Below, one piece after another: positions 912-31,062 of a stretch of DNA of 38,978 nucleotides. This DNA comes from Tannerella sp. (lineage in GTDB: Bacteria; Bacteroidota; Bacteroidia; Bacteroidales; Tannerellaceae), in the NCBI GenBank assembly GCA_031276175.1, contig JAISNP010000022.1:1-38978 (forward strand). The letters are read 5' to 3'. The position numbers and the translations under genes were made by a program. How positions within the stretch are numbered: position 1 is the first letter of the stretch; every line of letters begins with the position of its first letter. The notes under the pieces were generated by a model. That model was not told where the DNA came from, did not search any database, and worked only from the letters and a program-made list of their open reading frames with translations.

Positions 912-1100
912 AAACGTGCGCACGAATGGCGCAAACGTGCGCAAGAATGGCGCAAACGTGCGCACGTTTGGCGTAAACGTGCGCAAGAATGGTGTAAACG
1001 TGCGCACGAATGACGTAAACGTGCGCACGTTTGGCGAAAACGTGCGCAAGAATGGCGTAAACGTGCGCACGTTTGGTGTAAACGTACGCACGTTTTGAGC
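912..1100. repeat. 21-bp palindromic tandem array 1 (9 units)
   Basis: Nine consecutive units of exactly 21 bp start at 912, 933, 954, 975, 996, 1017, 1038, 1059 and 1080. Every unit begins AAACGTGCGCA (AAACGTACGCA in the last). Units 3, 6 and 8 complete the palindrome AAACGTGCGCACGTTT. The others have an altered right half (CACGAAT or CAAGAAT), so full and half palindromes are mixed. A spacer of about 5 bp (GGCGT-like) separates palindromes. The array sits in the 628-bp gap between the 3' end of the GH43-GH95 gene and the Rpn promoter, which holds no recognisable gene. Because 21 is a multiple of 3, heptapeptide-repeat reading frames run through it on both strands; I read these as by-products. 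Confidence 0.95.
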
Positions 1101-1281
1101 AGAAAAAGACCGCTATTCAATAGTAATCGGATTAATTATCAATAATTTAATCGAAAACAAAATTATGACGTGAAGATACGGAACCCTCGAAAAGCCCGAT
1201 GCCGAGTTTCCGGCACAGGCAAACGCCGTCCACAGTCTTTTAGAAGTGAAAGAAAATAAAAATCGTGATTACCTGCTCACG

Positions 1282-4200
1282 TTATTTACTATTCACCGGC
1301 TTCAAGTTGCCGTCCACCGTAATTGATTCTCCTTTTGCGAGCTTGTAGACGGCGGTTTTGCCGCCCGCCCGCAGATGCAACTTGCCGCCGACGTCGGCGC
1401 GGATATGCGCCTGCGTCAACCGTCCGTTTTCCCACGCCAGATCGACCGTGAATCCCCCGCGCGCACGCAGTCCTTTCACCGATCCGGAAGCGAAGGCCGC
1501 CGGCAGCGCGGGAAGCAATTGCACGTCGAAACTGCCGTCGGCAGCAGGCAGGTGACTCTGTACGAGCATCTCGGCGATGGCCGCCGTAGCGCCGAAGTTG
1601 CCGTCAATCTGGAACGGCGGATGGTCGTCGAACAGGTTGGGGAGCGTCTTGCGGCTCAGGAGGACGGAAAGGAGCGTGAAGGCATGATCTCCGTCATGCA
1701 GGCGGTTCCACATGTTGATTTTCCAGGCCAGTCCCCATCCCGTACCGTCGTCGCCGCGTGCGACAAGCGTCTTGCGGGCAGCTTCGGCCAGTTCCGGCGT
1801 GCCGACGACGGTAATCTGGTTGCCGGGGTGCAGCCCGAAGAGATGCGAGGTGTGCCGGTGGTGCGGTTCGACTTCCCGGTAGTCTTCCGCCCATTCGAGG
1901 ATGCGCCCCGTTGCGGGGCTGATGCGGACAGGCGGGAGGCGTTTGAGCGTTCGCTCACATTCGGCGCGGAAGTCTTTGTCGACTTTCAGGATGTTGGACG
2001 CTGCAATACAATTGGTCAGCAGGTTGTGAATGATTTCGAGATCCATCGTAGCGCCGTAGGTGAAGACCGACTGCGAGCCGTCCGGGAGGTAGAAGGCGTT
2101 TTCGGGCGAGTAGGAAGGGTTGGTCACGAGTTTTCCGGCGTATGCCGTTCCCGCCGGCGCTTCCACGAGGAAATCCAGGATGAAACGGGCGGCGCCTTTC
2201 ATGACCGGCCATGCGCGACGCGCAAGGAAATCCCTGTCTCCCGTGAAGCAGTAATGTTCCCACGGATGTTGCGCCAGCCACGCCGCCCCCACCGGCCATA
2301 TGCCCTGCGGCCCGTCGGCAGGCGCGGTGAAGCCCCATGCGTCGGTCAGGTGATGTACAACCCATCCGCGAGCGCCGTAGACAGTTTGCGCGGTTTTCTC
2401 TCCCGGCGGGATCATCACGTCGGTCAGGTCGAAGAGAGGCGTATGCAGTTCCGAAAGATTCGTAATCTCCGCCGGCCAGTAATTCATCTGGAAATTGATG
2501 TTGGTATGATAATCCGCATTCCACGGGGCGTTCATCTGCCATGCCCAAAGCCCCTGCAGGTTGGCGGGCATCCCGCCGGGACGAGAGGAGCCGATCAGAA
2601 GGTATCGCCCGAACTGAAAGTAGGTTTCGACCAGTCCGGGGTCGGGCGTTCCGTTCTTCCGCGCCAGAGCGAGGCGTTCGTCGGTCGGAAGGCTTTCCGT
2701 TTCCGGCGCGACGCGCCCCAGTCGGAGTGCGACGCGGTCGAAATACTGCCGGTGGTCGGCAATGTGCGCCGCCTTTATCGCGTCGTACGACTTGGTAACA
2801 ACCGTGGCAATCGCGTCCTCGCATTTCCGCTTCGGGTCTCCCGAAAAATCTTCTACGCCGCGCGCCAGATTGTCCATTCCGGGATAGTCGGTCGCTCCGG
2901 CGATGTAGAGGATGAGTGCGTCGGCGTCTTTCACGGTAAGCCGGCGGTCGTCCGTTACGGCAACCACACCGTTCTCGGCTACGGCTTTCACCTGTGCGGC
3001 AAAGCTGACGCCTCGCGGTTTGCCGTCTTTATCTTTCGTAGCGATACGACCGCTCAGGCGGAGGGAGTTCGGGTCGGAAGGCACGGCTTCGGTATGCGCG
3101 TCCTGCTCGCGCCGCAGATTAAGCGAGAGATTGATTTTCCGCTTTTGGTCGGCAGTGATACGGACGACGATGACATGATCGACAGCCGAAGCGAAATACT
3201 CGCGGGTATAATTTACTCCGCCGGAGGAGTAGCGCGTTTGCGCAACGGCGGTAGAGAGGTCGAGGCTGCGGACATAGCCGGCGGCCTCGCTTTCGGGCGT
3301 ATCAAACCAGAGTTCGCCCAGCGACTGGTAGGACTTGACGTGTTTGGGGACGCCCATCATCGTCTGTTCGGCCAGTTTGACGGCTTCGTTGTTTTTGTTT
3401 TCAAACAGCAGTCGCTGTACTTCGGGCAGGGCTTTCAGTCCTTCGGGATTGTTGGGGTTGAGGGGATATCCGTCCCACAGGGTGTTGTCGTTCAGTTGCA
3501 GGCGTTCGTCCGCTACGCCTCCGAATACCATCGCGCCCAGATGTCCGTTGCCCAGAGGCAAGGCTTCTTCCCAGACTTTGGCGGAACGGCGATACCAGAG
3601 TACGTTCCGGCCTTCGGGCCTGGCGCCTCCGTTGTCGGTGAACCGTGCACGGTCTGTCCACGATGCAGATATTAGCGTGTTCCGCCGGCTTGCTTCAAGT
3701 CCCAGCGTGGGAATCACCTTTTGTATTGAGCCGTCGGGATTGAAATAGAGTTTGTCGAAGCAGACGGAGCGCAGGTTGCCGCGTCCCGAAATATCGCAGG
3801 TATGATAGAAGAGATACCACTGCCCTTTGTATTCGACGACGGATCCGTGGCTGGTGTCGGAACTGACGGCATCCAGCAGGACGCCGCGATACTTCCAGGG
3901 GCCTAACGGTCGGTCGGACGTAGCGTAGCGCAGGCGGTTACGGCCCCGCTGATTGTCGGCATACATGAGGTAATAGGCGCCGTCTTTCTTAAAGACCCAT
4001 GCCGCTTCGTGGAAGTCTTCCAGACCGGTCATGTCCTGCAGGGCGCCGTCGAGTTCAATCATATTGTCTTTCAACTTGCCGGCCTTACATTTCGAGCCGC
4101 CGCCGTAATAAAAATAGGCCTGCCCGTCGGTATCGACGAAGACGCACGGGTCTATCATGGCAAAGGAGTCGATGTCGGCAAAATAACCCTGCACCTCAAA

Positions 4201-4611
4201 TCCTGCGACGGGGCTTTTACTCGTCGCCACACCGATTTTCCACGTATTGTTCCAGTCCGTACCGCTCGGATGCGGGAAATAAAAATAGTATGTCCCGTTT
4301 TTGAAGGCGCAGTCGGGCGCCCACATGAAACCGCCTTCCTTTCGTCCCCAGGGCACCTGGCCGGAGTGCAGTATTTCGCCATGGTCCGTCCAGCGCGCCA
4401 TGTCGTCGGTAGAATACACGTGGTAGCGGTCCATCAGGTCGCAGCCTCTGGGCGGATCAACGTCGTGCGAGGGATAAACGTACAGCCGTCCGTCAGCCCA
4501 GACGTGGGCAGAAGGGTCGGCGGTATAGAGGTCTCTTACGAAAGGATTGTTTTGGGCAAACGCCCATTGAGCCATAAGGAGGAGGCTCAGGAATGTAATT
4601 GTCTTTTTCAT
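1282..4611 (-). CDS. Secreted GH43-GH95 fusion (beta-xylosidase/arabinofuranosidase-like plus alpha-L-fucosidase/galactosidase-like)
   Basis: This is a 1109-residue two-domain glycoside hydrolase. Residues 1-20 are a Sec signal peptide (QWAFAQ cleavage region). Residues about 21-305 form a five-bladed GH43 propeller with all three acidic residues visible: D32 in TADPSAHV, D154 in MIDPCVF, E202 in DFHEAAW. Residues about 337-1100 are a full GH95 domain (GH95 enzymes are usually about 780 residues), with N704 and N706 in HTNIN and D1003 in FQIDGNFG, the residues known to act in GH95 alpha-fucosidases. GH95 includes alpha-L-fucosidases and alpha-L-galactosidases; GH43 removes arabinose, xylose or galactose. 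Together they would trim branched plant or mucin-like glycans in the periplasm. The GH43 half is a close paralogue of the free-standing GH43 at 5561-6586. It starts 8 bp after the stop of an Rpn gene. Exact substrate is unknown. Confidence 0.93.
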
Positions 4612-4619
4612 CTTGTTTG

Positions 4620-5498
4620 TTATTTTGTATTGTTGTTGTTCGTTGCAGCGGAGGAGGCAAGTATTCCCGCTATTTGCTCGCGGTTTAAGCCGGTAATGGC
4701 CTGTATCTGTTCCTCCGTCAGCCCGAGGCGCGCACTGTTTATGACTGTTTCCGTCAGGCTCTCCGCCCGGCCTTTCTTCTCTCCTTCTGCCAGGGCGTCG
4801 ACATAGTAGGTGCGGGTGGTGAGGATGATGTCCAGGTATTTGTCATACGTGTTCAGTTCGGCTTTGGTGTAGGAATTGCGTTCCAGATATTTTACGGCTT
4901 CTCCGGTTATTTTTTCTTGCAGCAACTCCGGCGGCACCTGCTCCGTGTCGCCCTTGATGCGTGTCAGGAATGTCAGCCACAGATCGTAGAGTTTCTTTTC
5001 GGCACGGTTGGTAGGACGGAATTTGGGCAGCTCGATGAAGATGAGTTCCAATCCTTCGATCTGCTTCTCCACATTTTCAATGTTGACTACCTTGTAGTCG
5101 TGATAGTAAACGGAGGGGTCGGGGTCGAAGGTGTCGTTGACGAAGTTCAGCGCGTAGACGGGCTGTATGAAGCGGTAATCGCCGCCCGCGTCCAATTGTC
5201 TGACGTAGGCTTTGGAGGCATTCAGCAATACGCGGCTTTTGAAGCTGCTTGTCCACTGTATTTGCATTTCGACGATAAACTGCCGTCCGAGGCAGTCGGT
5301 GCAGCAGACGTCCACGATGGAATCTTTCAGCACGGGGATTTCAGGTACCAGTTCGTTGGACTGGTATTTCAGGCTGACGATCTGCCGGTCTTTCTCCAGC
5401 GGCAGCATACTGTTGAGCAGGCTCATGCAAAGGTGTTCGTGTTCTCCGAAAATACGTTTGAACGTCAGGTCGTTCTTGGGGTCAAGATAATGCGGCAT
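4620..5498 (-). CDS. Rpn family recombination-promoting nuclease / PD-(D/E)XK transposase-like protein
   Basis: A complete 292-residue member of the Rpn/PDDEXK_2 family. The N-terminal [19 protein letters not shown] block and D63 ... GRQFIVEMQ (E77, Q79) are the nuclease core; the C-terminal 60 residues are a charged helix followed by a short helical repeat ([12 protein letters not shown]) common in this family, ending in a poly-Asn tail. The start at 5498 is preferred over the in-frame ATG 30 nt upstream because it aligns with the paralogue at 1-653 and is preceded by a promoter. The gene lies between two GH43-containing genes in the same direction, with its stop 8 bp from the next start. 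Known family members nick DNA and promote recombination; whether this one acts on nearby repeats is speculation. Confidence 0.9.
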
Positions 5499-5525
5499 AA
5501 TTTCTTTGTGTTTTGTTTCACCGGA

Positions 5526-5556
5526 CAAAGATAACGCTTAGTTATTACATAAACCA
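5526..5556 (-). promoter_or_regulatory. Bacteroidota-type promoter of the complete Rpn gene
   Basis: On the minus strand TTG (5556-5554) is followed after about 20 bp by TATCTTTG (5533-5526), the TTG / TAnnTTTG pattern. It lies in the short gap just after the stop of the upstream GH43 gene, so the Rpn gene can be transcribed independently of the enzyme cluster. Confidence 0.6.
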
Positions 5557-5560
5557 ATTT

Positions 5561-6586
5561 TCATTTGATTCCGTTGCTTGTCGGGATGACCTTTTTAATC
5601 GTGCCGTCGGGATTGTAATACAGTTTGTCGACGCAGACGGAGCGCAGCCAGTCGTTCGGCTCGCCGTTTTTTCGCGAGAGCGCGCTGTTGTGGTAGAAGG
5701 CATACCACTGTCCTTTGTATTCCACGATGGAGCCGTGGTTGGTGTAGCTGTCCGTCGGATCCATATAAATACCCTTGTATTCCCACGGGCCGAGCGGACT
5801 TTTGCCGACGGCATATCTCATGCGGTTGTCGCCTTTCACGCCTTCGCGGTCGTTGTTTTCGTCGTGGTTGTCGGAATACGAGAGGTAGTACGTGCCGTTT
5901 CTTTTGTGTATCCATGTCGCTTCGTGGAAGTCTTCCAGGCCTTCCATTACTTTCATTTCGCCGTCGATTTCCGTCATGTTGTCTTTCAGTTTGCCGCCTT
6001 TGCATACGCCTCCTCCGCCGTGGTAGAAGTAGGCCTGTCCGTCGTCGTCGATAAATACGCAGGGGTCGATAAGCGGGTCGATGCCGTGAATGTAGCCGAT
6101 CACTTTGAAGTCGCTCGCCGGTTTTTTGCTTGTGGCTATGCCGATTTTCCACGTGCGGTTCCACGGGTCTTCGCTCGGATGCGGGAAATAGAAGTAATAC
6201 GTGCCGTTTTTATAGACGCAGTCGGGCGCCCACATGAATTTTGCGTCATTCCGCAGGGGTTTTCCCCACGGCACCTGATCGGCGCGGAGGATTTCGCCGT
6301 GATCGGTCCAGTTCACCATGTCGTCGGTGGAGAAGACGTGGTATTCGTCCATCAGGTCGCAGCCGCGCGGAGGGGCGATGTCATGAGAGGCATACACGTA
6401 CAGCCGTCCGTCGTCCCAGACATGGGCGGAAGGGTCGGCTGTGTACATGTGTTTGATAAAAGGATTACCTTGTGCCGCGACATGGATAGCGCAGCAGATA
6501 AGCAGGGCAATTGCCGCGAGCACGGGATACGGACGCCGTTCGGATCGACGGCATCTCGGTTTGATGGATAAGAATGTCTGTTTCAT
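5561..6586 (-). CDS. Secreted GH43 family glycosidase
   Basis: A 341-residue single-domain GH43 enzyme. The N-terminus is long and Arg-rich before a hydrophobic core (residues about 22-38), a Sec signal with an extended n-region; no better internal Met exists. The catalytic triad of GH43 is present: D51 (TADPSAHV), D174 (LIDPCVF) and E222 (DFHEATW). It is highly similar to residues 20-305 of the GH43-GH95 fusion, including GRLYVYASHD and PPRGCDLMD blocks, so the two arose by duplication. Likely an arabinofuranosidase, xylosidase or galactosidase acting on side chains; subfamily cannot be fixed by eye. The next gene downstream is an Rpn nuclease, the same neighbour order as for the fusion gene. 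Confidence 0.93.
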   Translation of the reverse strand: MKQTFLSIKPRCRRSERRPYPVLAAIALLICCAIHVAAQGNPFIKHMYTADPSAHVWDDGRLYVYASHDIAPPRGCDLMDEYHVFSTDDMVNWTDHGEILRADQVPWGKPLRNDAKFMWAPDCVYKNGTYYFYFPHPSEDPWNRTWKIGIATSKKPASDFKVIGYIHGIDPLIDPCVFIDDDGQAYFYHGGGGVCKGGKLKDNMTEIDGEMKVMEGLEDFHEATWIHKRNGTYYLSYSDNHDENNDREGVKGDNRMRYAVGKSPLGPWEYKGIYMDPTDSYTNHGSIVEYKGQWYAFYHNSALSRKNGEPNDWLRSVCVDKLYYNPDGTIKKVIPTSNGIK

Positions 6587-6677
6587 AATGCTTTTAATTT
6601 ATAGTTGAAATGTTATGCGGGTTTGGTTCTCCGCTCTCCGGACAGGCAGAAGCGGGTTAATTTTCGGTTTTAAGTCG

Positions 6678-6733: not shown

Positions 6734-6789
6734 AAGCAGGTTTACGATTTTTTTCCTTTTTCTGTGCATCGCACTTGCGTCGGAATGAA

Positions 6790-8162: not shown

Positions 8163-8414
8163 GCCTTAACTCGGCGCCTCTCGGAGTTAACTCCGAGCCG
8201 CGCAGAGTTAACTCCGAGCCTCTCAGAGTTAGCTCCGAGCCTCTCGGAGTTAACTCCGAGCCTCTCAGAGTTAGCTCCGAGCCTCTCAGAGTTAACTCCG
8301 AGCCTCTCAGAGTTAACTCCGAGCCACGCAGAGTTAACTCCGAGCCACGCAGAGTTAGCTCCGAGCCTCTCGGAGTTAGCTCCGAGCCTCCCGGAGTTAA
8401 CTCCGAACGGCAAA
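8163..8414. repeat. 21-bp palindromic tandem array 2 (12 units)
   Basis: Twelve 21-bp units start at 8163 and every 21 bp up to 8394; the first and last are degenerate. The core is GAGTTAACTC, extending to CGGAGTTAACTCCG where the preceding unit ends in CG; four units carry GAGTTAGCTC instead. The linker alternates between CTCTC, CGCGC and CACGC types. The array lies in the 405-bp gap between the 3' end of GH2 and the start of the GH71/99-like gene; the remaining gap sequence holds no gene. Heptapeptide-repeat frames run through it on both strands. Confidence 0.95.
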
Positions 8415-8425
8415 AACTTGGTTGA

Positions 8426-8447: not shown

Positions 8448-8454
8448 TAAAATT

Positions 8455-11400
8455 TTATTTGTTCTCCGGATTTGTAAATGAAACTTTCAACTGATGCAGG
8501 AATGTATCATTATTTTCACATCTGAAACCGGCATTGAATCTGTTTTTGTCTTCCGGTCCTATGCGCAGTGTAATTTTGTTCCATCCCTGCCGTAACGGTA
8601 ATTCTCTGTATGTACTGTTCCGATTTGTTTTATTGGCGGCATGATACGGTTTGTCGTTCAACAGAAGGGCGTTTTGCCGGGTATCCACATATAATGTCAA
8701 TTCAGGCATATTGGGTTCAATCAGCAAATCGTCCAAAGGACGGGGACTGAATATCCAGCAATCTACAACATATTCGTCGGCTTCTTTTCTGAATTTGTCT
8801 TTTGCAGTTGCCGGAAATTGCAGATTGCCGTCGCGCAAGAAAAATATATCGGCAGCATTCGTATCGGTTTGCCGACAGGGAATCCCTGCCTGCTTCAACA
8901 GGAGCGCCAGTGTGTTATATCCCTTTTCCGAGTTGGTAAATTCAGTCAATGTACTCACATAATAGTTTTTGTATTTGACGAATGCGGGCGCGGCTCCCTT
9001 TTGTTCCCTTTCGGAGCGGACGACAGCGGCTGTTTTCAGTTCTTCGGGCTGTTTGTTCCATTTGCGCCAATCGGTATTGCAGGCATTCAACAGAATATCT
9101 CCTTCGTTGACAAAGTCGCCTGAAAGTCCGTATTGCGAAGCATCACTGTTTTGAATTTCGCAGAAGTAGAAATCCGAATTTGCCAGTCCTTTAAACCATG
9201 ATTTCTGTTCAGGGATAAAAGATGATATTTTACGTTCCTCCAGAGCGACAGGTAAAGGTAAGATATTGTTGTATGCGTTTACTGTTTGAGGTACAATTCC
9301 CCAAATCCAGACGTCAGCGCCTTTGGCAGCGCTTTGCAGCAGTTTTTTCTTCTCTGCTTCCGTCGGGATTTGACTGCCGTCAACGATATACAACCGCTGT
9401 TGAGGAGTCGTCGCCTTAGTTGTGAAATTCACTCCCTGCATATCCATTATGCGCTTTAAACAGGCATTTTCACTGCCTGTAAACACGACTTCCCGATACG
9501 TATCCGTCGAAATATTCATTTTCCCTGTCCGGTTTTGCGCTGCCGGGTTATACATATAGGGTGATTCTGCCGGTTTTTCCGGCGCATAGGCTGCGCGCAT
9601 GGCGTCGTACATCGGCCAGGGTTGATACAGCGGCAATGCCGGGTCGTATCCCGGATTGAATGTGGTGCAGTAGGGACCCATCCGTTCGGGCTGTATTCCG
9701 GGAAGTCCTTCTTTATAATCCGTAAAAAAGATACCGTCTTCGGTTAAGGAAGGAGCGGCTGTCAAATCTTTCTTTCCGAGCGGAAGCGGTTGAAGCGCAT
9801 ACCATGCCATATTGAATACCGAGACGTAAGAAGCTCCCATTTTGCGCTGAGCGGCTATCAGGCTGTAACATTCGACAGCCAAGCCTTTCATACGTCCGTA
9901 TTGAGAAGTATAGGCTTCTTCGCCGTTGTATTTCGACACCTGTTCGGGAGTGCCGTAATAAGCCATGCTGTGTTCTCCGATACCCCAGGGTTTACCGATT
10001 TCCGCCCAGCGTTTCATCGAGTTTAAATCGCCGTAATGACCTACTGTTGTCGGCAGAATACCGTCGCCGTCATCTTCGCCGTCGGCGGATATCCAGGGAC
10101 GGGTAGGGTCGTTTTTCATCACAGTATTTCGCCAGTCTTCCCATGCCTGCTTTTGATACGGCATCAATTCCGGCCGGTTATAGACGTGGAGTATTACGGG
10201 TTTGTTTTCGTTGCTGATACTCCATCCGAATACGGAAGCATGATTTCTGTCCCGCAATACCAGGCGTTCGAGGTGTTGTTCGGAGGCTTCCCAAAACTTG
10301 TCGGAGTCCAGTTTAGGTCCTCCGTCGCTTGCCCAGTTGGCTGTTTCATTCAGGACGCAAATACCCATTTCGTCGGCAACATCCAGATAAAAACGGGGAT
10401 ATACCTGCGCATGAGGTCTCACCGCATTCCCGTTCATTCCTTTGATTGCAGTAAACCATGCCCAGGCGTACCGGCGGGTCAGTTGAGGCACTCCCATAAA
10501 ATGCCACGAATCACCTTTCAGTTCCACCGGTTTTCCATTTAAACATTGCCGTGTTCCCTGGAAAGTCCATTCCCGCCATCCGAAGCGTTCATATTTGGTA
10601 TCAATGACTTGCTTTTTATTGTTTACAAACAGACGCAGAGCGTACAGATTGGGATGTTCGGGCGTCCAGTAAGCCAGGTCGCCTTCCTTAACCGGAACCT
10701 GCAGGATTGTTTTGGTTTTCCCTCCGGCGGCTACCGTCAGCTTTACCGCTGCGATATCCAATGCTTTTAAACCTAATTTCCAATCGGGTACAGGAGCGGA
10801 ATGGATATCTGTTCCGGCTTTGTTTACCCATTCGCTGATAAGCCCCTGAAGTTGAATGTCCGCTTTTTCCGCAGTATTATTCTGTACGGTAACTTCCAGT
10901 TCCAAAAGATTTTTTGATACCAGCGGCTTTACATATATATCCTCCACATGAATTGGAGGCAATGCAATTAAAAATACGTCTTGCCAGATACCGGCAATAT
11001 GGTATCCCCACATTGAACCGGCAGGTACAATACGTCTGCCGATGGTGGCACGGTCTTCAAACAAAGACTGGCTTCTTACGCCAACCATGATTTCAATGGT
11101 TTCTCCGGGTACAGCCATACGGGTAATATCCACGTCAAACGGAAGAAAAAGGTCGAAATTTTCGCCGGTTTTCCTGTTGTTTACATAGACCTCCGTAAAG
11201 CCGGCGACGGCTTCGAAGTGCAGCCTGATTTGCATGTCTGTCCAGTCGGAAGGGACAGTGACCGTCTTTTTCATCCAGGCCATTTTCACGTCTTCCCATA
11301 CTTTGGGATAGGATGGATAGTTGCGATGGTCGGGACCTTCCGAACCGCGATTGGCAAAGGCGTTGATGTTCCAGGGCGAAGGTATTTTTATTTTCGTATT

Positions 11401-11784
11401 ACTCCACGCATTGCCGGCAGGCAGGGGTAATTCGGACGCTGTCCCTTTTCCCTGCACATAATTTTCGGGCAGTTCTACGGCTTGAAAATTCCAAAGTCCG
11501 TTCAGGCAGATTTCTTTTCGATATTCTTTTTCCGTTTTATTGACGAAGCCTTCATGCGGCGCAAACGTTTTACTGTAGATGGTTTGTCCGTTCAGGGAGA
11601 AAACGGTTGTACATAAAAAGATACACAACAGAATAGAAGATCCCCACCGGTGATAGCGATTCGTCAAATCGCATCCGCGAGGCGGGTTGACATCGTACGA
11701 AGGATTATTCCGGGCAAACGCCCACCAATCTGTCAGGAAGATGTTCACAAGTGACAGAATGATTCTTATCAATCTAATTTTCAT
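8455..11784 (-). CDS. GH2 glycosidase (beta-galactosidase/glucuronidase-like) with a GH43-derived N-terminal graft
   Basis: A 1109-residue protein. Residues about 65-1000 are a GH2 enzyme: jelly-roll domain (LNGLWNFQ, about 95-250), immunoglobulin-like domain, then the TIM barrel with acid/base E526 in SISNEN and nucleophile E604 in GIGEHSM. The C-terminal 400 residues are additional beta-rich domains. The first 45 residues are odd: a signal peptide ending WAFARNNP and the stretch DVNPPRGCDLTNRYH match the N-terminus of the neighbouring GH43 enzymes with about 25 residues deleted; a second hydrophobic segment (SSILLCIFLCTTVF, about 48-62), probably the original GH2 signal peptide, follows. 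No ATG exists at the junction, so the fused start at 11784 appears to be the only normal one. Export and anchoring of the product may therefore be altered. Confidence 0.9.
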   Translation of the reverse strand: MKIRLIRIILSLVNIFLTDWWAFARNNPSYDVNPPRGCDLTNRYHRWGSSILLCIFLCTTVFSLNGQTIYSKTFAPHEGFVNKTEKEYRKEICLNGLWNFQAVELPENYVQGKGTASELPLPAGNAWSNTKIKIPSPWNINAFANRGSEGPDHRNYPSYPKVWEDVKMAWMKKTVTVPSDWTDMQIRLHFEAVAGFTEVYVNNRKTGENFDLFLPFDVDITRMAVPGETIEIMVGVRSQSLFEDRATIGRRIVPAGSMWGYHIAGIWQDVFLIALPPIHVEDIYVKPLVSKNLLELEVTVQNNTAEKADIQLQGLISEWVNKAGTDIHSAPVPDWKLGLKALDIAAVKLTVAAGGKTKTILQVPVKEGDLAYWTPEHPNLYALRLFVNNKKQVIDTKYERFGWREWTFQGTRQCLNGKPVELKGDSWHFMGVPQLTRRYAWAWFTAIKGMNGNAVRPHAQVYPRFYLDVADEMGICVLNETANWASDGGPKLDSDKFWEASEQHLERLVLRDRNHASVFGWSISNENKPVILHVYNRPELMPYQKQAWEDWRNTVMKNDPTRPWISADGEDDGDGILPTTVGHYGDLNSMKRWAEIGKPWGIGEHSMAYYGTPEQVSKYNGEEAYTSQYGRMKGLAVECYSLIAAQRKMGASYVSVFNMAWYALQPLPLGKKDLTAAPSLTEDGIFFTDYKEGLPGIQPERMGPYCTTFNPGYDPALPLYQPWPMYDAMRAAYAPEKPAESPYMYNPAAQNRTGKMNISTDTYREVVFTGSENACLKRIMDMQGVNFTTKATTPQQRLYIVDGSQIPTEAEKKKLLQSAAKGADVWIWGIVPQTVNAYNNILPLPVALEERKISSFIPEQKSWFKGLANSDFYFCEIQNSDASQYGLSGDFVNEGDILLNACNTDWRKWNKQPEELKTAAVVRSEREQKGAAPAFVKYKNYYVSTLTEFTNSEKGYNTLALLLKQAGIPCRQTDTNAADIFFLRDGNLQFPATAKDKFRKEADEYVVDCWIFSPRPLDDLLIEPNMPELTLYVDTRQNALLLNDKPYHAANKTNRNSTYRELPLRQGWNKITLRIGPEDKNRFNAGFRCENNDTFLHQLKVSFTNPENK

Positions 11785-11790
11785 ATCTGT

Positions 11791-17436: not shown

Positions 17437-17800
17437 TAATATGTATATCGGATATGATACCTCAACCGGCCGGAAGCCGTCGTCCGGACGGGCAAAAGGA
17501 CTTCCGGGTCGTGAAAAGTGCCGGAATCCTCACATGAGTTTGTTTCAACCTCACGTGAGTTTGTTTCAACCTCACGTGGGTTTATTTCAAACACACATGA
17601 GTTTGTTTCAAACACACGTGAGTTTGTTTCAACCTCACATGAGTTTGTTTCAACCTCACGCGAGTTTAAAAAAAACACACGCGAGGATTTTTCGTCTTTT
17701 CCCGGAAAAGGGCTGTTTATTCCGTCGTCCGGACGCCGCAAGAATAAATGACGATTGCGGCTTTCAACCGAGAGCGGTATCATATCCGATATACATATTA
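17437..17800. mobile_element. Array-bearing element with perfect 25-bp terminal inverted repeats
   Basis: A 25-bp sequence at 17437-17461 is repeated in perfect inverted orientation at 17776-17800 (its right copy begins GGTATCATATCC). Inside, both sides also carry a 14-bp copy of CCGTCGTCCGGACG (17477-17490 and 17722-17735), whose core CGTCCGGACG is palindromic, and a second partial match of the outer region (CTCAACCGG / TTTCAACCG). Array 3 lies in the middle. The layout (about 364 bp, inverted ends, no coding capacity) is like a MITE, but no clear target duplication is visible. The same end sequence occurs beside array 2. An alternative is that the ends are twin operators for the divergent genes. 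Confidence 0.55.
17528..17695. repeat. 21-bp palindromic tandem array 3 (8 units)
   Basis: Eight 21-bp units start at 17528 and every 21 bp to 17675, the last two degenerate. The core is CTCACGTGAG (CTCACATGAG or ACACACGTGAG in variants) followed by TTTGTTTCAA. The wider unit AACCTCACGTGAGTTT is a 16-bp palindrome with one mismatch and a 5-bp linker, the same geometry as array 1. It lies between the divergent esterase and glycosyltransferase genes; no gene is visible in this 406-bp gap. Confidence 0.94.
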
Positions 17801-21867: not shown

Positions 21868-22065
21868 ATTTGCTTTGTTTCTATACAATACTTATGCCGG
21901 TAAAAGTAATAAAAATATAAATACAACCCATACGTAATTTGAGTTCGATATAAAAAATTAAATACGGATACCACATAATCCGGATTACACAAAGGGCTAA
22001 CTTAATCTTTCGATATTCATTCTTACGAAAAAAAACTGCTGAATATACACAAATTTTTGGCCGAG

Positions 22066-22254
22066 AAACATGAGTCTTTGACCAAGAAACATGAGTCTTT
22101 GCGATAAAAACACGAGTCTTTTGCCGATAAACACATGTCTTTTGTTGATAAACACGTGTTTTTTGCCGATAAACACGTGTTTCTTGCCGATAAACACGTG
22201 TTTCTTGTTGATAGACTCGTGTTTTTTGCCGAAAAATAAGTATTTTTTTGTCGA
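22066..22254. repeat. 21-bp palindromic tandem array 4 (9 units)
   Basis: Nine 21-bp units start at 22066 and every 21 bp to 22234; outer units are degenerate. The best units (22150, 22171, 22192) contain the 12-bp palindrome AAACACGTGTTT followed by CTTGCCGAT; earlier units read AAACATGAGTC or AAACACGAGTC. The array occupies the 542-bp gap between the divergent unknown gene and feoAB. The rest of the gap holds the feo promoter and operator candidate (separate entries) and otherwise no gene. Confidence 0.94.
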
Positions 22255-22394: not shown

Positions 22395-22409
22395 TTTCAA
22401 ATTAGCGTA

Positions 22410-24872: not shown

Positions 24873-24887
24873 AAGAGTGGATGCGCA

Positions 24888-25240: not shown

Positions 25241-25289
25241 GTTTGTGATAACAATATACATGTTTATAAACTAAAAATACAGGCAGCTT

Positions 25290-27233
25290 ATGAGTTACCT
25301 TAAATTCGACAAGACGATGTTGATCAATCTCGAAGAATCGCTGCTCAGGGAAGCGCTTCGGACAAACCGGAAAGGCGCATATCACTGTACGACGATAGTA
25401 GACTGCAACACACGCAAATATCATGGCGTGCTGGTGATGCCGGTACCTAAAATCGACGATGATAATCACGTCCTGCTCTCGTCTCTCGACGAGACGGTGA
25501 TCCAGCACGGCGCCGAGTTCAATCTCGGTATTCACAAGTACGGGGGTAACAATTTCAGTCCGAACGGGCATAAGTATATCCGCGAATATACGATGGACGT
25601 AGTGCCGCGCACGGTGTATCGCGTCGGCGGAGTAGTGCTTGCCAAGGAAAAGGTTTTTTCGCGGACAGACAATCAGATACTCATCAAGTATACCCTGCTG
25701 GACGCCCACTCGGCTACCACTCTGCGCTTCCGTCCGTTCCTGGCGTTCCGCAGCGTCAAGGCGCTTACTCACAAGAACGACTATGCCGACTTGTCGTATC
25801 AGGAAGTGCCGAACGGCATCAGGATGTGCCTCTACGAAGGCTATCCCGACCTCTACATGCAGTTCAACAAGAAGCCGGAGTTTGTGTACGAGCCATACTG
25901 GTACAACGGCATAGAATATCCGAAGGAGCAGGAAAGGGGATACGAATACAAGGAAGACCTGCTTGTGCCGGGCTATTTCGAACTGCCCATATGCAAGCAT
26001 GAAAGTATTGTTTTCTGTGCGAGCGACATCCGGCGCCACGGGCTTGCGAGGCTCCCGCAGCAGTTCGAAGAGGAAGTAAAGGAGCGCACGCCGCGTTCGA
26101 GCTTCGTCAACTGCCTGAAAAACTCCGTGCATCAGTTGGCATACCGACCGAACAACGGCACGAACGTCTATCTGCTGGCAGGCTATCCGTGGTTTAAGGT
26201 GCGGGCGCGCGACATGTTTGTCGCCATGCCGGGCGCCACGCTCTGCATCGGCGAAGATCAGTTGTACAGGCAACTGATGCAGACGGCCATCCCCGCGCTG
26301 CAAACGTTCATGCGCGACGGGATGCCGGACAAGGTCATCCGCGAAATCAATGAACCCGACGTATTGCTCTGGGCTGTGTGGTGCATACAGCAATTCAGGT
26401 TCAAGAAGGGATTGGACGAGACGCGGGCGCTGTACGGCGAAACGGTGAACGAAATCGTGGCATACATCACGGCGCAGAGGCATCCCAACCTGAAGGTGGC
26501 CGACAACGGGCTGCTGTACTGCAACGGACGCGAAAGGCCGGCGACGTGGATGAACTCCATGTCGAACGGCAGACCCGTCGTCCCGCGCTCCGGATATATC
26601 GTGGAGCACAACGCACTTTGGTACAACGCGCTTTGCTTTGCGAAAGAATTAAATGGAGATACGCCCACGTCGGAAAATCTCGACAAGTTGATCAGGATGC
26701 TGGACACGTCGTTCCCCTCCACGTTCGTGAACGAACACAACTACCTGTTCGACTACGTGGACGGTACGGAACGCGACTGGAGCGTGCGCCCCAACATGGT
26801 CATCGCCCTTGCATGTGCCTGTTCGCCCCTGTCGCGCACGCAGAAGAAGAGGGCGCTGGACATCGTCACCAAGGAATTGCTTACGCCCAACGGACTGCGC
26901 TCGCTAAGCCCGAAAAGCAACGGATACCGCCCCAACTGTTCGGGGTCGCAGCACGAGCGCGATCTGGCCTATCATCAGGGCGCGGCGTGGCCGTGGCTGA
27001 TCGGAATGTATCTGACCACCTACATCGACCTGTTCCGCCGGGGCGGAGTGTCGTTTGCCGAACGGATGCTTATCAGTCTTGAGGAAGAGATTTCGCAGCA
27101 CTGCATCGGGGCGATCTCGGAAGTGTTCGACGGCAATCCGCCGTTTGCCGCACGCGGCGCCTTTTCGTTCCTGATGAGCATTGCGGCCGTGCTGCAGGTG
27201 ATTGACAAGATAATGACGTATGATGAACAATAA
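25290..27233 (+). CDS. Glycogen debranching enzyme (amylo-alpha-1,6-glucosidase type)
   Basis: A 647-residue cytoplasmic protein. Residues about 17-240 are the N-terminal beta-sandwich domain of bacterial/archaeal debranching enzymes (RKGAYHCTTIVDCNTRKYHG, LSSLDETV), and about 275-640 an (alpha/alpha)6-barrel GDE_C domain with GYPWFKVRARD (298-308), NEPDVLLW, GQ-like HQGAAWPWLIG and the NG...TWM substrate-site block. These enzymes cut alpha-1,6 branches of glycogen. It is the first gene of a three-gene operon: the next start is 15 nt after its stop. Confidence 0.92.
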   Translation: MSYLKFDKTMLINLEESLLREALRTNRKGAYHCTTIVDCNTRKYHGVLVMPVPKIDDDNHVLLSSLDETVIQHGAEFNLGIHKYGGNNFSPNGHKYIREYTMDVVPRTVYRVGGVVLAKEKVFSRTDNQILIKYTLLDAHSATTLRFRPFLAFRSVKALTHKNDYADLSYQEVPNGIRMCLYEGYPDLYMQFNKKPEFVYEPYWYNGIEYPKEQERGYEYKEDLLVPGYFELPICKHESIVFCASDIRRHGLARLPQQFEEEVKERTPRSSFVNCLKNSVHQLAYRPNNGTNVYLLAGYPWFKVRARDMFVAMPGATLCIGEDQLYRQLMQTAIPALQTFMRDGMPDKVIREINEPDVLLWAVWCIQQFRFKKGLDETRALYGETVNEIVAYITAQRHPNLKVADNGLLYCNGRERPATWMNSMSNGRPVVPRSGYIVEHNALWYNALCFAKELNGDTPTSENLDKLIRMLDTSFPSTFVNEHNYLFDYVDGTERDWSVRPNMVIALACACSPLSRTQKKRALDIVTKELLTPNGLRSLSPKSNGYRPNCSGSQHERDLAYHQGAAWPWLIGMYLTTYIDLFRRGGVSFAERMLISLEEEISQHCIGAISEVFDGNPPFAARGAFSFLMSIAAVLQVIDKIMTYDEQ

Positions 27234-27248
27234 ACGCACCACTCGAAG

Positions 27249-28508
27249 ATGAAAGCACTAATGTATGGATGGGAATTTCCGCCGCACATACTGGGCGGAT
27301 TGGGCACTGCAAGTTTCGGACTGATACGTGGGATGTCGATGCAGCCCGACATGGAAATCACGTTCGTGATGCCCCGGCCGTGGGGCGACGAAGACCGGAG
27401 TTTCCTTAAAATCATCGGCGCATGTCATACGCCGGTCGTGTGGCGCGACGTAAGCCACGACTATGTGTCCCACCGGCTGTCGGGATTTATGGAACCGACC
27501 GGCTATTTCGAACTGCGGAATCATATATACGACGATTTCCGTTACTGCCATGTGGACGATCTGGGATGTATTGAGTTTTCCGGCAGGTATCCCGACAATC
27601 TGCAGGAAGAGATAAACAACTATTCCATCGTGGCGGGCGTAATTGCGCGCACGGAGCAGTACGACATTATTCATGCACACGACTGGCTGACCTATCCCGC
27701 AGGGATACATTCGAAGATGGTGAGCGGAAAGCCGCTCGTCATCCACGTACATGCCACGGACTACGACCGCAGCCGCGGCAACGTGAATCCCGACGTGTAT
27801 CACATCGAAAAGAACGGAATGGATCATGCGGACAGGATTATCACCGTGAGCAACCTTACGCGGCAGACCGTCATCGAAAAATACCACCAGCATCCGGACA
27901 AGGTGATTACGGTGCACAACGCCGTCGAGCCGCTCGGACAGGAAATCCTGTCTATTACGGACAAGCGGGGAGTGACGGACAAGGTGGTCACTTTCCTGGG
28001 ACGGATCACGATGCAGAAAGGCCCCGAATACTTCGTCGAAGCGGCGGCAAAGGTGTTGCAAAAAACGAACGGCGTGCGCTTCGTGATGGCCGGCAGCGGC
28101 GACATGACGGACAGGATGATCAGGCTCGCGGCCGCGCACCACATCTCCGACCGCTTCCACTTCACGGGTTTCATGAAAGGCAGGCAAGTGTACGAGATAT
28201 TCCGCGCAAGCGACGTCTACGTAATGCCCTCCGTCTCCGAACCCTTCGGCATCTCGCCCCTCGAAGCCATGCAGTGCGGCGTGCCGTCCGTCATCTCCAA
28301 GCAGTCGGGATGCGCCGAGATACTGAACTATGCCGTCAAGGTCGACTATTGGGACATTGAGGCAATGGCCGACGCCATCTACGGCCTCATCTCCTACCCC
28401 CGCCTGCACGCCTTCCTGCGCGAAGAAGGACTGAAGGAGGCGAACGGCCTCAAGTGGGAACACGCGGGACGGAAGGTACGCCACGTGTACGACAGCATCC
28501 TGCACTGA
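27249..28508 (+). CDS. Glycogen-synthase-like GT4/GT5 glycosyltransferase
   Basis: A 419-residue GT-B enzyme. GWEFPPHILGGLGTASFG at residues 7-24 resembles the glycine-rich glucose-nucleotide loop of glycogen synthases; DIIHAHDWLTYPAG and VIHVHATDYDRSRG are acceptor/donor-site motifs, FLGRITMQKGPEYF starts the second domain, and the E-x7-E motif is EPFGISPLE. With debranching enzyme upstream and GH57 downstream this is the conserved Bacteroidales glycogen operon, so elongation of alpha-1,4-glucan is the probable role. Confidence 0.88.
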   Translation: MKALMYGWEFPPHILGGLGTASFGLIRGMSMQPDMEITFVMPRPWGDEDRSFLKIIGACHTPVVWRDVSHDYVSHRLSGFMEPTGYFELRNHIYDDFRYCHVDDLGCIEFSGRYPDNLQEEINNYSIVAGVIARTEQYDIIHAHDWLTYPAGIHSKMVSGKPLVIHVHATDYDRSRGNVNPDVYHIEKNGMDHADRIITVSNLTRQTVIEKYHQHPDKVITVHNAVEPLGQEILSITDKRGVTDKVVTFLGRITMQKGPEYFVEAAAKVLQKTNGVRFVMAGSGDMTDRMIRLAAAHHISDRFHFTGFMKGRQVYEIFRASDVYVMPSVSEPFGISPLEAMQCGVPSVISKQSGCAEILNYAVKVDYWDIEAMADAIYGLISYPRLHAFLREEGLKEANGLKWEHAGRKVRHVYDSILH

Positions 28509-28562
28509 ACCGAACGACAAAGCACAACTTACATTATATACACACAATAACAACATCACGAT

Positions 28563-29870
28563 ATGAAAACAATCTGTTTCTACTTCCAGATACACCAGCC
28601 GTTTCGTCTGCGGCGGTATCGCTTTTTCGACATAGGCAACAGCCACTATTACTACGACGATTTCCTGAACGAGGAAATATTCCACCGCATCGCCGGGAAG
28701 TGCTACCTGCCTGCCAACCGCATCGTGAAAGAAATGATAACGGCAAGCGAGGGGCGGTTCAAAGTAGCGTTCTCCATTTCGGGAACGGCTATGGAACAGA
28801 TGGAAATATACTCGCCCGAAACGCTCGACAGCTTCCGCGAACTGGCGCAGCTCGACGGCGTGGAACTGCTGGCCGAAACCTATGCCCACTCGCTCTCGTC
28901 GCTCGGCGATGCGGACGAGTTCGAAGATCAGGTCGGGAAACATGCCGACAAGATGCACTCGCTCTTCGGCGTTCGCCCCAAAGTATTCCGAAACACGGAA
29001 CTCATCTATTCCGACGACATCTCCCCGCTCGTTCACCGCATGGGCTTCCGGGGGATGCTCACCGAAGGCGCAAAACACGTACTGGGATGGAAAAGCCCCA
29101 ACTACGTCTACGCCTCAGCCGCCTGCCCGCAACTTAAACTGCTGCTCAAGAACGCCCGATTCAGCGAAGACCTCGCCATACGATTCGCCAACCGCTCGTG
29201 GAGCGAATATCCGCTCACAGCCGACAAATACATCGCATGGATAGCCTCCACGCCCGAAACCGAGCAAGTGTTCAACCTCTTCATGAACTACGAAACGCTC
29301 GGCTCGATGTACGGCGCCGAAACGGGGATTTTTGAATTTTTCAAAGCCCTGCCCCGCTTTGCCGAAAGAAGCGGCATCACCTTCTCGCTACCCTCCGAGA
29401 TTCTCGACGCCAACCGGTCGGTCGACTGCATCTCCGTCCCCTACCCCATGTCGTGGGTCGACGAAGAAAAAGACTGCAGTTCGTGGCTCGGCAACGTACT
29501 CCAGCAGGAAGCCTTCCGCAAAATCAACGAAATAGGCGAACGCGTGCGCCTCTGCGAAGACCGGCGCATCAGGCAGGACTGGCTATACCTGCAAGGCAGC
29601 GACCACCTGTACTACATGAACACGAAACACTACAACCTATTCAGCCCGTACGACAACCCGTACGACGCGTTCAACAACTACATGAACGTCCTGTCCGACT
29701 TCATCCTCCGCGTCGAGGCGCAATACCCGTCCTCCGTCGACAACGAAGAACTGCACTCGCTGCTGACCATGATCAAAAACCAGTCGGAAGAAATCGAGAT
29801 GCTCAAACGCCGGCTGGAAATGTTCCAGAAACGCGAAAACGGAAGCCGTACCAAAAACAGACGAACATGA
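28563..29870 (+). CDS. GH57 alpha-amylase-like protein with altered catalytic Asp
   Basis: A 435-residue cytoplasmic GH57 protein. FQIHQP (8-13) is conserved region 1 and the nucleophile is E146 in FRNTELIY. Region 4 reads LFMNYETLG: N242 stands where GH57 amylases have the acid/base Asp (DYETFG type). The codon is AAC at 29286-29288, one base from GAC. A C-terminal coiled helix (SEEIEMLKRRLEMFQK) ends the protein. GH57 amylase-like homologues with substituted catalytic residues are described in Bacteroidota. It lies 54 nt after the glycosyltransferase gene; it may be a weak enzyme, or an alpha-glucan-binding partner. Confidence 0.88.
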   Translation: MKTICFYFQIHQPFRLRRYRFFDIGNSHYYYDDFLNEEIFHRIAGKCYLPANRIVKEMITASEGRFKVAFSISGTAMEQMEIYSPETLDSFRELAQLDGVELLAETYAHSLSSLGDADEFEDQVGKHADKMHSLFGVRPKVFRNTELIYSDDISPLVHRMGFRGMLTEGAKHVLGWKSPNYVYASAACPQLKLLLKNARFSEDLAIRFANRSWSEYPLTADKYIAWIASTPETEQVFNLFMNYETLGSMYGAETGIFEFFKALPRFAERSGITFSLPSEILDANRSVDCISVPYPMSWVDEEKDCSSWLGNVLQQEAFRKINEIGERVRLCEDRRIRQDWLYLQGSDHLYYMNTKHYNLFSPYDNPYDAFNNYMNVLSDFILRVEAQYPSSVDNEELHSLLTMIKNQSEEIEMLKRRLEMFQKRENGSRTKNRRT

Positions 29871-29909
29871 CGCGCCGATATTTCCCGCTTTATCTTAACA
29901 TGTGTTCGG

Positions 29910-29951
29910 AAAAGAGTCGGAATCGCAGGCAAAAGAGTCGTGCGTGCGATG
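29910..29951. repeat. Possible minimal two-unit 21-bp repeat
   Basis: AAAAGAGTCG occurs at 29910 and again exactly 21 bp later at 29931, in the gap after the GH57 gene. Flanking 21-bp frames (29889 and 29952) are degenerate at best. The period equals that of the five large arrays, but two copies of 10 bp alone could be chance. Confidence 0.35.
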
Positions 29952-30014
29952 CAAAAAAGAATATTGATTATTATCCCGGCTGCAGAATATCATAAGTAAT
30001 ACGGCATAATTGCT

Positions 30015-30022
30015 TACCTTTG
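30015..30022 (+). promoter_or_regulatory. -7 element upstream of the unknown gene at 30041
   Basis: TACCTTTG fits TAnnTTTG; a transcript starting near 30029 would give a leader of about 12 nt before the ATG at 30041. No good -33 TTG at the usual spacing. Confidence 0.45.
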
Positions 30023-30040
30023 CGCCGTAAAAATGAATTT

Positions 30041-30685
30041 ATGGAATTAGACCAACTCGACAAAGTTACATTACATTTCCGCTTCATATGCCCTCTCGAA
30101 GAATACCGGGAAGTGCAAACTCTGATTACAATGATCGGAATCGGACGGGAAGCCGACCTTATGGAAATAAACGAAACGGCAGACCGGCAGATGGGCAATA
30201 TCCTTTCCTTCGGAAAAAAAATGACGGAAGGCACGAAGGTCGTCTCCGACGAACCGGGGAAAGAAATTTCCATTCACTTCAAATGTACTGCCTCCGAATA
30301 TGCCGCAATATTTAAATGTCTCAACCATGGCGCCATATTCTATTCACAACTTCCGCATGAACAAAACATAAACGCCGACAAAGCCATATTGGCCACTCTC
30401 TTTCGCAATCGCCTGAGAGACGCCCTCCTCGTACCCGACATCGAACTACTCATGGAAACCGACGACGCCATATACCTTAAAGATACCGGTAAAGGAAAAG
30501 TATCCATTACCCAAAGCGCCGAATTTATAAGCCAGTACTATGCCGACTGCGGTCGCATATTTTACGTCGACACCGAAAGCCGGTGGGCGGAAATCGTCCA
30601 CCGCCAAGGCAACTTTATGCGCTTCGACTCCATCGAGGAAGAAGAAATCCTGCAACTCATCGCTACCCTGACTCCCGAAAGCTAA
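30041..30685 (+). CDS. Uncharacterised cytoplasmic protein
   Basis: A 214-residue protein with no signal peptide or membrane segment and no domain I recognise. The ATG at 30041 (MELDQLDKVTLHFRF) is preferred because an ATG at 30020 would lie inside the promoter element. It has mixed alpha/beta composition, acidic overall, with an acidic end (FDSIEEEEILQLIATL). It has its own promoter element, and array 5 follows between it and the outer-membrane protein gene. No function is proposed. Confidence 0.75.
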   Translation: MELDQLDKVTLHFRFICPLEEYREVQTLITMIGIGREADLMEINETADRQMGNILSFGKKMTEGTKVVSDEPGKEISIHFKCTASEYAAIFKCLNHGAIFYSQLPHEQNINADKAILATLFRNRLRDALLVPDIELLMETDDAIYLKDTGKGKVSITQSAEFISQYYADCGRIFYVDTESRWAEIVHRQGNFMRFDSIEEEEILQLIATLTPES

Positions 30686-30726
30686 AAACCGCAATACCTG
30701 TACAACCCTGCGGCTGAAAGGTCGAC

Positions 30727-31062
30727 AATAACTTATTTACGGTCGGCAATAACTCGGTTATGGTCGGCAATATTTCATTTATTGCCGTAAATAACTCGGT
30801 TACGGTCGGCAATAACTCATTTATTGCCGTACATAACTCGGTTATTGCCGGCAATAACTCATTTATTGCCGTACATAACTCGGTTACTGCCGGCAATAAC
30901 TCATTTATTGCCGTAAATAACTCGGTTATGGTCGGCAATAACTCATTTATTGCCGTAAATAACTCGGTTACTGCCGGCAATAACTCATTTATTGCCGTAA
31001 ATAACTTGGTTATTGCCGTACATAACTCGGTTATTGCCGTAAATAACTCGGTTATTGCCGAC
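30727..31062. repeat. 21-bp palindromic tandem array 5 (16 units, 42-bp alternation)
   Basis: Sixteen 21-bp units start at 30727 and every 21 bp to 31042, with a degenerate unit after. The typical unit is AATAAC-TCG-GTTATT-GCC-GTA/GGC; where flanks are GGC and GCC the inverted repeat spans nearly the whole unit (arms GGCAATAAC and GTTATTGCC). Between 30748 and 30999 two types alternate, one with TCGGTTA and one with TCATTTA, giving a 42-bp higher-order period. The array fills the 536-bp gap between the unknown gene and the outer-membrane gene; only the promoter element of the latter is otherwise seen. Open heptapeptide-repeat frames cross it. Confidence 0.96.

What the first reader, a model, noticed from the sequence alone, without database searches (positions are those of the whole stretch)
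912..31062. Five locus-specific arrays of 21-bp palindromic units: a candidate undescribed repeat system
Five intergenic gaps each hold a tandem array (9, 12, 8, 9 and 16 units) with an invariant 21-bp period. All units are built round a palindrome, but the palindrome differs at each locus: AAACGTGCGCACGTTT, GAGTTAACTC, CTCACGTGAG, AAACACGTGTTT, and AATAAC-TCG-GTTATT. So geometry is conserved and sequence is not. 21 bp is two helical turns, putting every centre on one DNA face, which suits cooperative binding by a dimeric protein, or a hairpin-rich RNA. Each array lies 5' of at least one gene. Ordinary satellite drift or CRISPR (unique spacers) does not explain this. The mechanism keeping the period while sequence diverges is unknown.
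Basis: partly seen in the sequence, partly recalled or inferred. Interest (0 to 1): 0.92.

Follow-up and report, generated by a model that had tools for sequence, protein, structure and literature searches.

The report
Genome-wide 21-bp mirror-symmetric repeat arrays
Five strings of a repeated 21-letter DNA unit in this gut bacterium are samples from roughly 250 such arrays estimated to be scattered over its genome, some carried by small mobile elements, and although their sequences differ widely they share nearly the same spacing and an excess of mirror symmetry.

Summary
In detail: five arrays of 9, 12, 8, 9 and 16 units, all with period 21 and no other basic period. They are not locus-specific. 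Arrays 1, 2, 3 and 5 are copies of dispersed families, and arrays 2 and 3 lie in MITE-like elements with inverted ends and 9-12 bp target duplications. Stretches of 40 contigs of the same genome (642 kb of 2,794) hold 60 arrays, about 260 per genome by extrapolation: 48 of 60 have period 20-23 and 8 of 60 have 41-42 (TRF agrees). A one-contig same-genus genome is dominated by 40-43 bp. Seventy outgroup loci (1,234 kb) have none at 20-23 bp. Over distinct families, dyad symmetry exceeds column-permuted controls and dyad positions are about half as variable as the rest. No G-U strand bias was seen, which favours a DNA-level cause over RNA. The closest known elements are minisatellite MITEs of Porphyromonas gingivalis (BrickBuilt 23 nt, PgRS 41 nt). 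I file this as a new variant of that kind. The clustering at two or four helical turns and the constrained dyads are the new part; binding by a dimeric protein is favoured but unproven.

The parts
912..1100 (.). Array 1: 9 units of 21 bp, dyad AAACGTGCGCACGTTT; family 1
   Evidence: further copies in own genome at C21, C70, C137, C30, C132, C111
8072..8447 (.). MITE-like element of family 2 holding array 2; right terminal repeat shared with family 3, left end degenerate; imperfect 12-bp flanking duplication
   Evidence: begins about 22 bp 5' of the likely start codon (8049, inferred) of the minus-strand gene below
8166..8417 (.). Array 2: 12 units of 21 bp, dyad GAGTTAACTC
17441..17796 (.). 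MITE-like element of family 3 (356 bp) with inverted ends ATGTATATCGGATATGATACC ... GGTATCATATCCGATATACAT
17528..17695 (.). Array 3: 8 units of 21 bp, dyad CTCACGTGAG
22051..22239 (.). Array 4: about 9 units of 21 bp, dyad AAACACGTGTTT, between divergent genes (FeoA-FeoB protein gene on the right); no copy of its flanks found elsewhere in the genome
   Evidence: no array in the sequence held upstream of FeoB in relatives L009-L013
30721..31056 (.). Array 5: 16 units of 21 bp forming an alternating 42-bp unit, dyad AATAAC-TCG-GTTATT
31057..31216 (+). Conserved right flank of family 5, containing a promoter-like TATCTTTGC box (recalled Bacteroidota -7 type) and ending just before the start codon of the next gene (31222)

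Best explanation
These are minisatellites carried by small non-autonomous mobile or intergenic elements that have multiplied in this Tannerella-like lineage to roughly 250 arrays per genome (extrapolated). SHOWN: four of the five unit families are dispersed; two window families sit in MITE-like elements with inverted ends and target duplications; one terminal repeat bounds three unlike arrays; unit number varies between copies; unit length clusters at 20-23 or 40-43 bp across distinct families; units have excess dyad symmetry whose positions vary about half as much as the others, without strand bias. INFERRED: each unit is a two-turn DNA site with dyad symmetry (or two such sites in the 41-42 bp class), packed side by side on one face of the helix, most likely occupied by a dimeric DNA-binding or architectural protein that reads geometry more than exact sequence. 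Arrays spread by transposition, grow and shrink by slippage or unequal exchange, and drift in sequence, while exchange within the array and the two-turn site size hold the period. Identity as a minisatellite element family is about 0.85 likely; the protein-occupancy step about 0.35.
For: Dispersed copies. Ends and target duplications: L097 12 bp, L108 9, L101 9, L122 10, L121 9 (the last a low-complexity T/A run). 58 terminal-repeat sites within 2 mismatches against 0 for the reversed control pattern. The same end on three unlike arrays. Period tallies: 60 arrays in 642 kb, 48 at 20-23 and 8 at 41-42; TRF 45 and 10 of 65. One-contig relative G021: 28 of 39 at 40-43 by TRF. Dyads: fold z against column-permuted arrays -2.76 and -2.70 over 41 families (first 252 bases of each array, 40 permutations); variability ratio inside to outside the dyad 0.53 against 0.975 +/- 0.084 (0 of 300) for 38 families and 0.51 against 1.03 +/- 0.15 (0 of 300) for 18 families of G021. 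No G-U strand bias. Copies of families 2 and 3 range from no array called (L101, L102, L108, complete family-3 elements) to about 18 units.
Against: No autonomous partner with these ends was found. No inverted ends were recognised for families 1, 4 and 5. Only 13 of 41 families have a locally significant palindrome, and several have none. Compensatory double changes are only weakly raised (23 against 14.5 +/- 4.0; 14 against 10.1 +/- 4.7), and the variability ratio in the eight most symmetric G021 arrays is not significant (0.86 against 1.005 +/- 0.256). Some families retain remote kinship, so family-level statistics are not fully independent. Nothing identifies a binding protein. Helical phase alone would also allow 31 or 52 bp units, which are almost absent. 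Mutational quasi-palindrome correction (recalled mechanism) could also lower variability in dyads.
Confidence: 0.6

Rival explanations
1. Pure descent: one ancestral 21-bp array (and one or few 41-42 bp ones) spread and its sequence drifted; the period stays because indels cannot spread through an array as easily as substitutions. No selection on length.
For: Among 44 period-21 arrays (946 pairs, copies of one family included) 87 pairs reach z>=3 and 39 reach z>=5; 99% of 150 permuted pairs lie below 2.49; at z>=3 29 of 44 arrays form one component. The same end bounds unlike arrays. A 42-bp unit (L278) resembles a 21-bp unit (z 6.4), and 41-bp units of one G021 locus resemble two 21-bp units here (z up to 9.7, only 15 shuffles).
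Against: Families of 20, 22 and 23 bp show no clear kinship to the 21-bp ones (best z 3.8), and the 41-42 bp arrays do not reach the detection threshold at 21, so they are not simple doubled units; P. gingivalis is reported to have its own 22, 23 and 41 nt repeats (PMC4596501). Does not explain low variability in dyads.
Confidence: 0.3
2. Hairpin-driven mutation: sequences able to form small hairpins slip during replication and so seed and expand arrays, and template switching perfects the palindromes; no function.
For: Excess self-complementarity in most families, similar on both strands; low variability within dyads is also what quasi-palindrome correction would give.
Against: Does not predict unit length clustering at two or four helical turns, nor the very different density in a near relative (G051: 2 arrays of 20-23 bp in 278 kb).
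Confidence: 0.3
3. Transcribed hairpin-rich RNA.
For: Strong folding in silico; [quoted passage not shown]
Against: Changes in dyad arms that would leave G-U pairs are not biased to one strand within arrays (74 against 81.0 +/- 3.2 expected in 26 arrays; 44 against 44.1 +/- 2.3 in 14 arrays). No Rfam match at gathering cut-offs in the window.
Confidence: 0.1
4. Protein-coding heptad repeats (21 bp = 7 codons); open frames do run through arrays.
For: Open frames run through most or all of each of the five arrays.
Against: Periods of 20, 22, 23, 40, 41 and 43 are not multiples of 3. Open frames are expected in any period-21 array lacking a stop.
Confidence: 0.02

Closest known systems
BrickBuilt MITE of Porphyromonas gingivalis (PMC4596501; abstract, sections 5, 8, 9 and the first of two parts of section 7 read)
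   Same: Intergenic element with leader and tail, internal tandem repeat of about two helical turns (23 nt), no spacers, variable unit number, inverted ends, dispersed in many copies, self-complementary repeats
   Different: One sequence family, 19 copies and 0.44% of the genome in strain ATCC 33277, IS5-type ends GAGACC...; here 44 unit families in the sample, about 250 arrays extrapolated, other ends, 9-12 bp target duplications
MITEPgRS / MITE464 of P. gingivalis (described in PMC4596501 section 7)
   Same: 41-nt tandem repeats inside a MITE, the same length as the 41-42 bp class here
   Different: Its 41-nt repeat is reported without matches outside P. gingivalis; its ends GAGACTGTTGCA differ from those here
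REP/BIME elements with RAYT transposases (recalled)
   Same: Clustered palindromic units in intergenic DNA
   Different: Only one Y1 transposase domain match in the whole genome and no single consensus among the arrays; linkage not tested
Plasmid iteron arrays and the F plasmid sopC centromere (recalled, no call)
   Same: Direct repeats of about 22 or 43 bp in helical register, bound cooperatively; sopC units contain a palindrome
   Different: Single locus on a replicon with a cognate protein; here many chromosomal arrays of unlike sequence and no known protein

Membership tests
Minisatellite-bearing MITE (BrickBuilt kind) | Head-to-tail repeats without spacers inside a short element with leader and tail | tested here: met
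   families 2 and 3; not shown for family 4
Minisatellite-bearing MITE (BrickBuilt kind) | Terminal inverted repeats | tested here: met
   family 3 both ends, family 2 right end exact and left end degenerate; not recognised for families 1, 4, 5
Minisatellite-bearing MITE (BrickBuilt kind) | Target site duplication | tested here: met
   five copies with 9-12 bp repeats (L097, L101, L108, L121, L122); the two window copies imperfect, L102 and L120 without a clear one, L090 cut by a contig end
Minisatellite-bearing MITE (BrickBuilt kind) | Intergenic location | tested here: met
   56 of 59 merged arrays not inside a called gene; the caller drops frames of which an array makes more than a quarter, so small genes made of repeats are excluded by construction; one of the three 'inside' (window array 2) is probably a caller error
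BrickBuilt proper | IS5-type ends GAGACCTTTGCA | tested here: not met
   ends here are ATGTATATCGGATATGATACC against those printed in PMC4596501 Table 2, compared by eye
BrickBuilt proper | Bidirectional promoter activity | not testable with these tools
   needs reporter assays
CRISPR | Unique spacers between repeats | tested here: not met
   units are contiguous
REP/BIME with RAYT | RAYT (Y1) transposase associated with the palindromes | tested here: inconclusive
   one PF01797 match in the genome at C38, not examined for linkage

The most novel reading that the evidence does not exclude
A lineage-wide DNA-organising system: one dimeric (or tetrameric) chromosomal protein recognises geometry, namely dyad-symmetric sites two helical turns long repeated on one face of the helix, with little sequence specificity. 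Mobile elements that supply such arrays are tolerated or favoured, so that unlike sequences converge on 21 or 42 bp in hundreds of arrays across Tannerella-like genomes, with the 22, 23 and 41 nt repeats of P. gingivalis as a parallel case.
Probability: 0.22. Interest if true: 0.85.

Novelty: new variant of a known kind. Interest (0 to 1): 0.62.

Why it matters
Minisatellite length is usually thought arbitrary. Here tens of unlike repeat families in two genomes of one genus fall on about two or four helical turns and carry dyads that vary about half as much as their surroundings. That makes a long-ignored class of bacterial repeats testable: either a protein reads their geometry, or there is a mutational mechanism with a fixed step. 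It might also explain why MITEs of P. gingivalis carry 22-23 and 41 nt repeats.

Tried and rejected
CRISPR: no spacers. Known RNA family: no Rfam match in the window at gathering score; for one 42-bp array (L263) only matches below each family's gathering score, on both strands. Coding heptads: periods not divisible by 3 occur. RNA hairpin: no G-U bias. Elements placed only 5' of genes: convergent gaps are not avoided, 9 of 42 arrays against 7 of 91 array-free gaps above 150 bp (own gene caller, so rough); in G021 2 of 25. Autonomous partner: no inward pair of the ends 1-2.5 kb apart in the list; no transposase search was made beyond the Y1 family. Plasmids and phages: no match to the family 3 element. 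Empty-site comparison: no array of the sampled contigs had both flanks aligned in the sampled G051 DNA and related loci; in the three searches made, homology to near relatives stops beside the arrays, which may only mean that both lie outside operons. Papers: the nine searches listed nothing that I recognised as 21/42-bp repeats in Tannerella (titles and abstract starts only); PMC7014623 (T. forsythia comparison, term search only) has no occurrence of tandem, repeats, MITE or intergenic; PMC5771137 and PMC10969869 were seen as passages; PMC4755523 (188-bp Prevotella repeat) was seen as passages and judged unrelated.
Full report
WHAT IS THERE. A self-match scan over all periods from 8 to 129 finds five arrays in the window, reported only at 21 and its multiples; TRF gives the same five, plus a few short rows of period 9, 11 and 16. 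Array 5 is a higher-order 42-bp repeat. The window is contig C120 of a 2.79 Mb, 145-contig genome. Its FeoB is closest, at 85-89%, to contigs titled 'Tannerella sp.' MAGs; that these MAGs come from termite guts is recalled, not read from a call.

NOT LOCUS-SPECIFIC. Each array except the fourth is one copy of a dispersed family. Searches of the own genome give six further places for array 1, most with some flank, eleven contigs with copies of array 2, a dozen or more places for the element of array 3, some of them leader or tail only, and about eight for array 5. Array 4 has only array-level similarity of 67-78% elsewhere. No array lies in the sequence held upstream of FeoB in relatives L009-L013 (for L009 and L011 only 317 and 409 upstream bases are held).

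CARRIERS. The element of array 3 runs from 17441 to 17796 with inverted ends ATGTATATCGGATATGATACC; copies elsewhere show flanking duplications of 12 (L097), 9 (L108) and 9 bp (L101). Three complete copies (L101, L102, L108) hold one or two units and no called array, others up to about 18 units. The family 2 element has the same right end, a degenerate left end and duplications of 10 (L122) and 9 bp (L121, low-complexity), with an imperfect 12 bp in the window; L120 shows no clear one. The same end bounds a third, unlike array (L280, unit CATCACATGTGTGATAACTTT). The 16-base core of the end occurs 58 times within two mismatches, against 0 for the reversed control. No autonomous partner was identified.

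GENOME SCAN. In stretches of 40 contigs (642 kb) there are 60 arrays with periods between 9 and 70: 21 (39), 20 (1), 22 (3), 23 (5), 41 (3), 42 (5), and 18, 54, 62, 66 (1 each) (22 arrays in the first 252 kb, 38 in the second 390 kb). TRF gives 65 arrays of period 9 or more and about 3 copies, 45 at 20-23 and 10 at 40-43. This is about 9.3 per 100 kb, about 260 per genome by extrapolation. Collapsing units at 72% identity leaves 44 families (window included): 35 at 20-23, 5 at 41-42, 4 other. A one-contig genome of the same genus (G021, 200 kb sampled) has 38 arrays, dominated by 42 (18) and 41 (10), or 28 families with 22 at 40-43, 3 at 21-22 and 3 other. Stretches of nine other same-genus genomes (198 kb, some only a few kb, some chosen for a match) gave 6 arrays: 21 (3), 23, 41, 16. 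The near relative G051 has only two arrays of 20-23 bp in 278 kb by the scan, so density changes quickly. In the family, G010 has 0 by the scan and 2 of 22 bp by TRF in 200 kb, G049 has 0 in 60 kb, and four genomes of other genera have short 20-22 bp arrays. Seventy loci, nearly all from other Bacteroidota and two titled as other phyla (1,234 kb), have 15 arrays by TRF, 0 at 20-23 and 1 at 40-43.

DYAD SYMMETRY. A local palindrome exceeding shuffled units at p<=0.05 is found in 13 of 41 families (18-24 and 39-44 bp) of the own genome and 6 of 25 in G021: enriched, not universal. With the whole unit considered, the signal is strong. Folding against arrays whose columns are permuted (keeping repetition, composition and variation; first 252 bases, 40 permutations) gives mean z of -2.76 and -2.70 on the two strands, 27 of 41 families below -1.64 on both; in G021 -1.86 and -1.51, 12 of 25. 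One array per family: matched fraction under the best reflection 0.615 against 0.506 +/- 0.011 permuted (38 families; 0 of 300) and 0.544 against 0.466 +/- 0.012 (18 families; 0 of 300). Heterozygosity in dyad positions relative to others is 0.53 against 0.975 +/- 0.084, and 0.51 against 1.03 +/- 0.15 (0 of 300 each). Families with fewer than three usable interior units were dropped (3 of 41, 7 of 25). Compensatory double changes are only slightly raised, and in the top third of G021 arrays (8) the ratio 0.86 is not significant. Because some families keep remote kinship, they are not fully independent.

DNA OR RNA. Substitutions in dyad arms that leave a G-U pair on one strand are no commoner on one strand than the other within arrays (26 and 14 arrays with at least three such changes), so no strand preference is seen. 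This favours a DNA-level cause but does not prove it.

WHY THE PERIOD STAYS. Two causes can be separated. Descent: among 44 period-21 arrays, copies of one family included, 87 of 946 pairs reach z>=3 (39 reach z>=5, mostly plain family copies), while 99% of 150 permuted pairs lie below 2.49; at z>=3 29 arrays form one component. For example array 5 lies in one z>=4 cluster with ATAACTCGTTTATTGTCGACC and GAGTTTCTGTCGACAATAAAC. Convergence: families of 20, 22 and 23 bp show no such kinship to the 21-bp ones (best z 3.8), though a few 41-42 bp units do resemble 21-bp ones (z 6.4 here, up to 9.7 in one G021 locus); P. gingivalis is reported to have 22, 23 and 41 nt tandem repeats too (PMC4596501, section 7). 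Lengths of one, three or five turns are almost missing, which points to a site of two turns (a dimer-sized site) rather than to helical phase alone. This last step is inference.

GENE CONTEXT. With a simple codon-based gene caller, 42 of 59 merged arrays could be classed: 20 between co-oriented, 13 divergent, 9 convergent genes; 14 at contig edges and 3 'inside' a call, one of these probably a caller error. So the arrays are mostly intergenic but not specifically 5' of genes. Window neighbours include a PD-(D/E)XK transposase-family gene, glycosidases, an acetyl xylan esterase-like gene, a glycosyltransferase and a FeoA-FeoB protein.

CLOSEST KNOWN AND VERDICT. The architecture matches the minisatellite MITEs of P. 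gingivalis (BrickBuilt, 23 nt; PgRS, 41 nt), but the ends differ from the IS5-type ends printed for them, so this is not BrickBuilt itself. New here, as far as my searches show, are the number of unlike families, the length clustering and the measured constraint on dyads. I judge it a new variant of a known kind.

Noticed in passing
window 1282-4611, 5561-6586 and 8455-11784: Glycosidase genes share a GH43-type N-terminal stretch (DVxPPRGCDL...; by eye); in 1282-4611 a GH43 domain is fused to a GH95 enzyme, and the GH2 gene at 8455-11784 begins with a short remnant of the same stretch, suggesting gene-end shuffling or assembly joins.
   Followed up: no
window 3-653; C97, C63, C7, C121: The PD-(D/E)XK (PF12784) transposase-family gene has several copies of 91-94% DNA identity in the genome, the matches ending upstream of the gene but before array 1.
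   Followed up: partly
window 17795, 21929, about 29839-33620; L271 arrays: DNA homology to near relatives (G051 and others) stops beside the arrays in the few cases seen; could reflect operon ends.
   Followed up: partly
L173 and L185, right flank of family 5: The promoter-like flank and gene start that follow array 5 are also found with about one unit or none, so the array seems to have grown or shrunk upstream of a paralogous gene.
   Followed up: partly
L017:8161-8404: A contig of a more distant Tannerella MAG (FeoB 74% identical) carries a 21-bp array of nearly the same unit as family 3 elements here but with different flanks, so unit sequences can outlive or move between elements.
   Followed up: no
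G021 samples L224 and L227: Long 41- and 42-bp arrays lie next to each other, in L224 with related units of differing period, a place to study how period changes.
   Followed up: no
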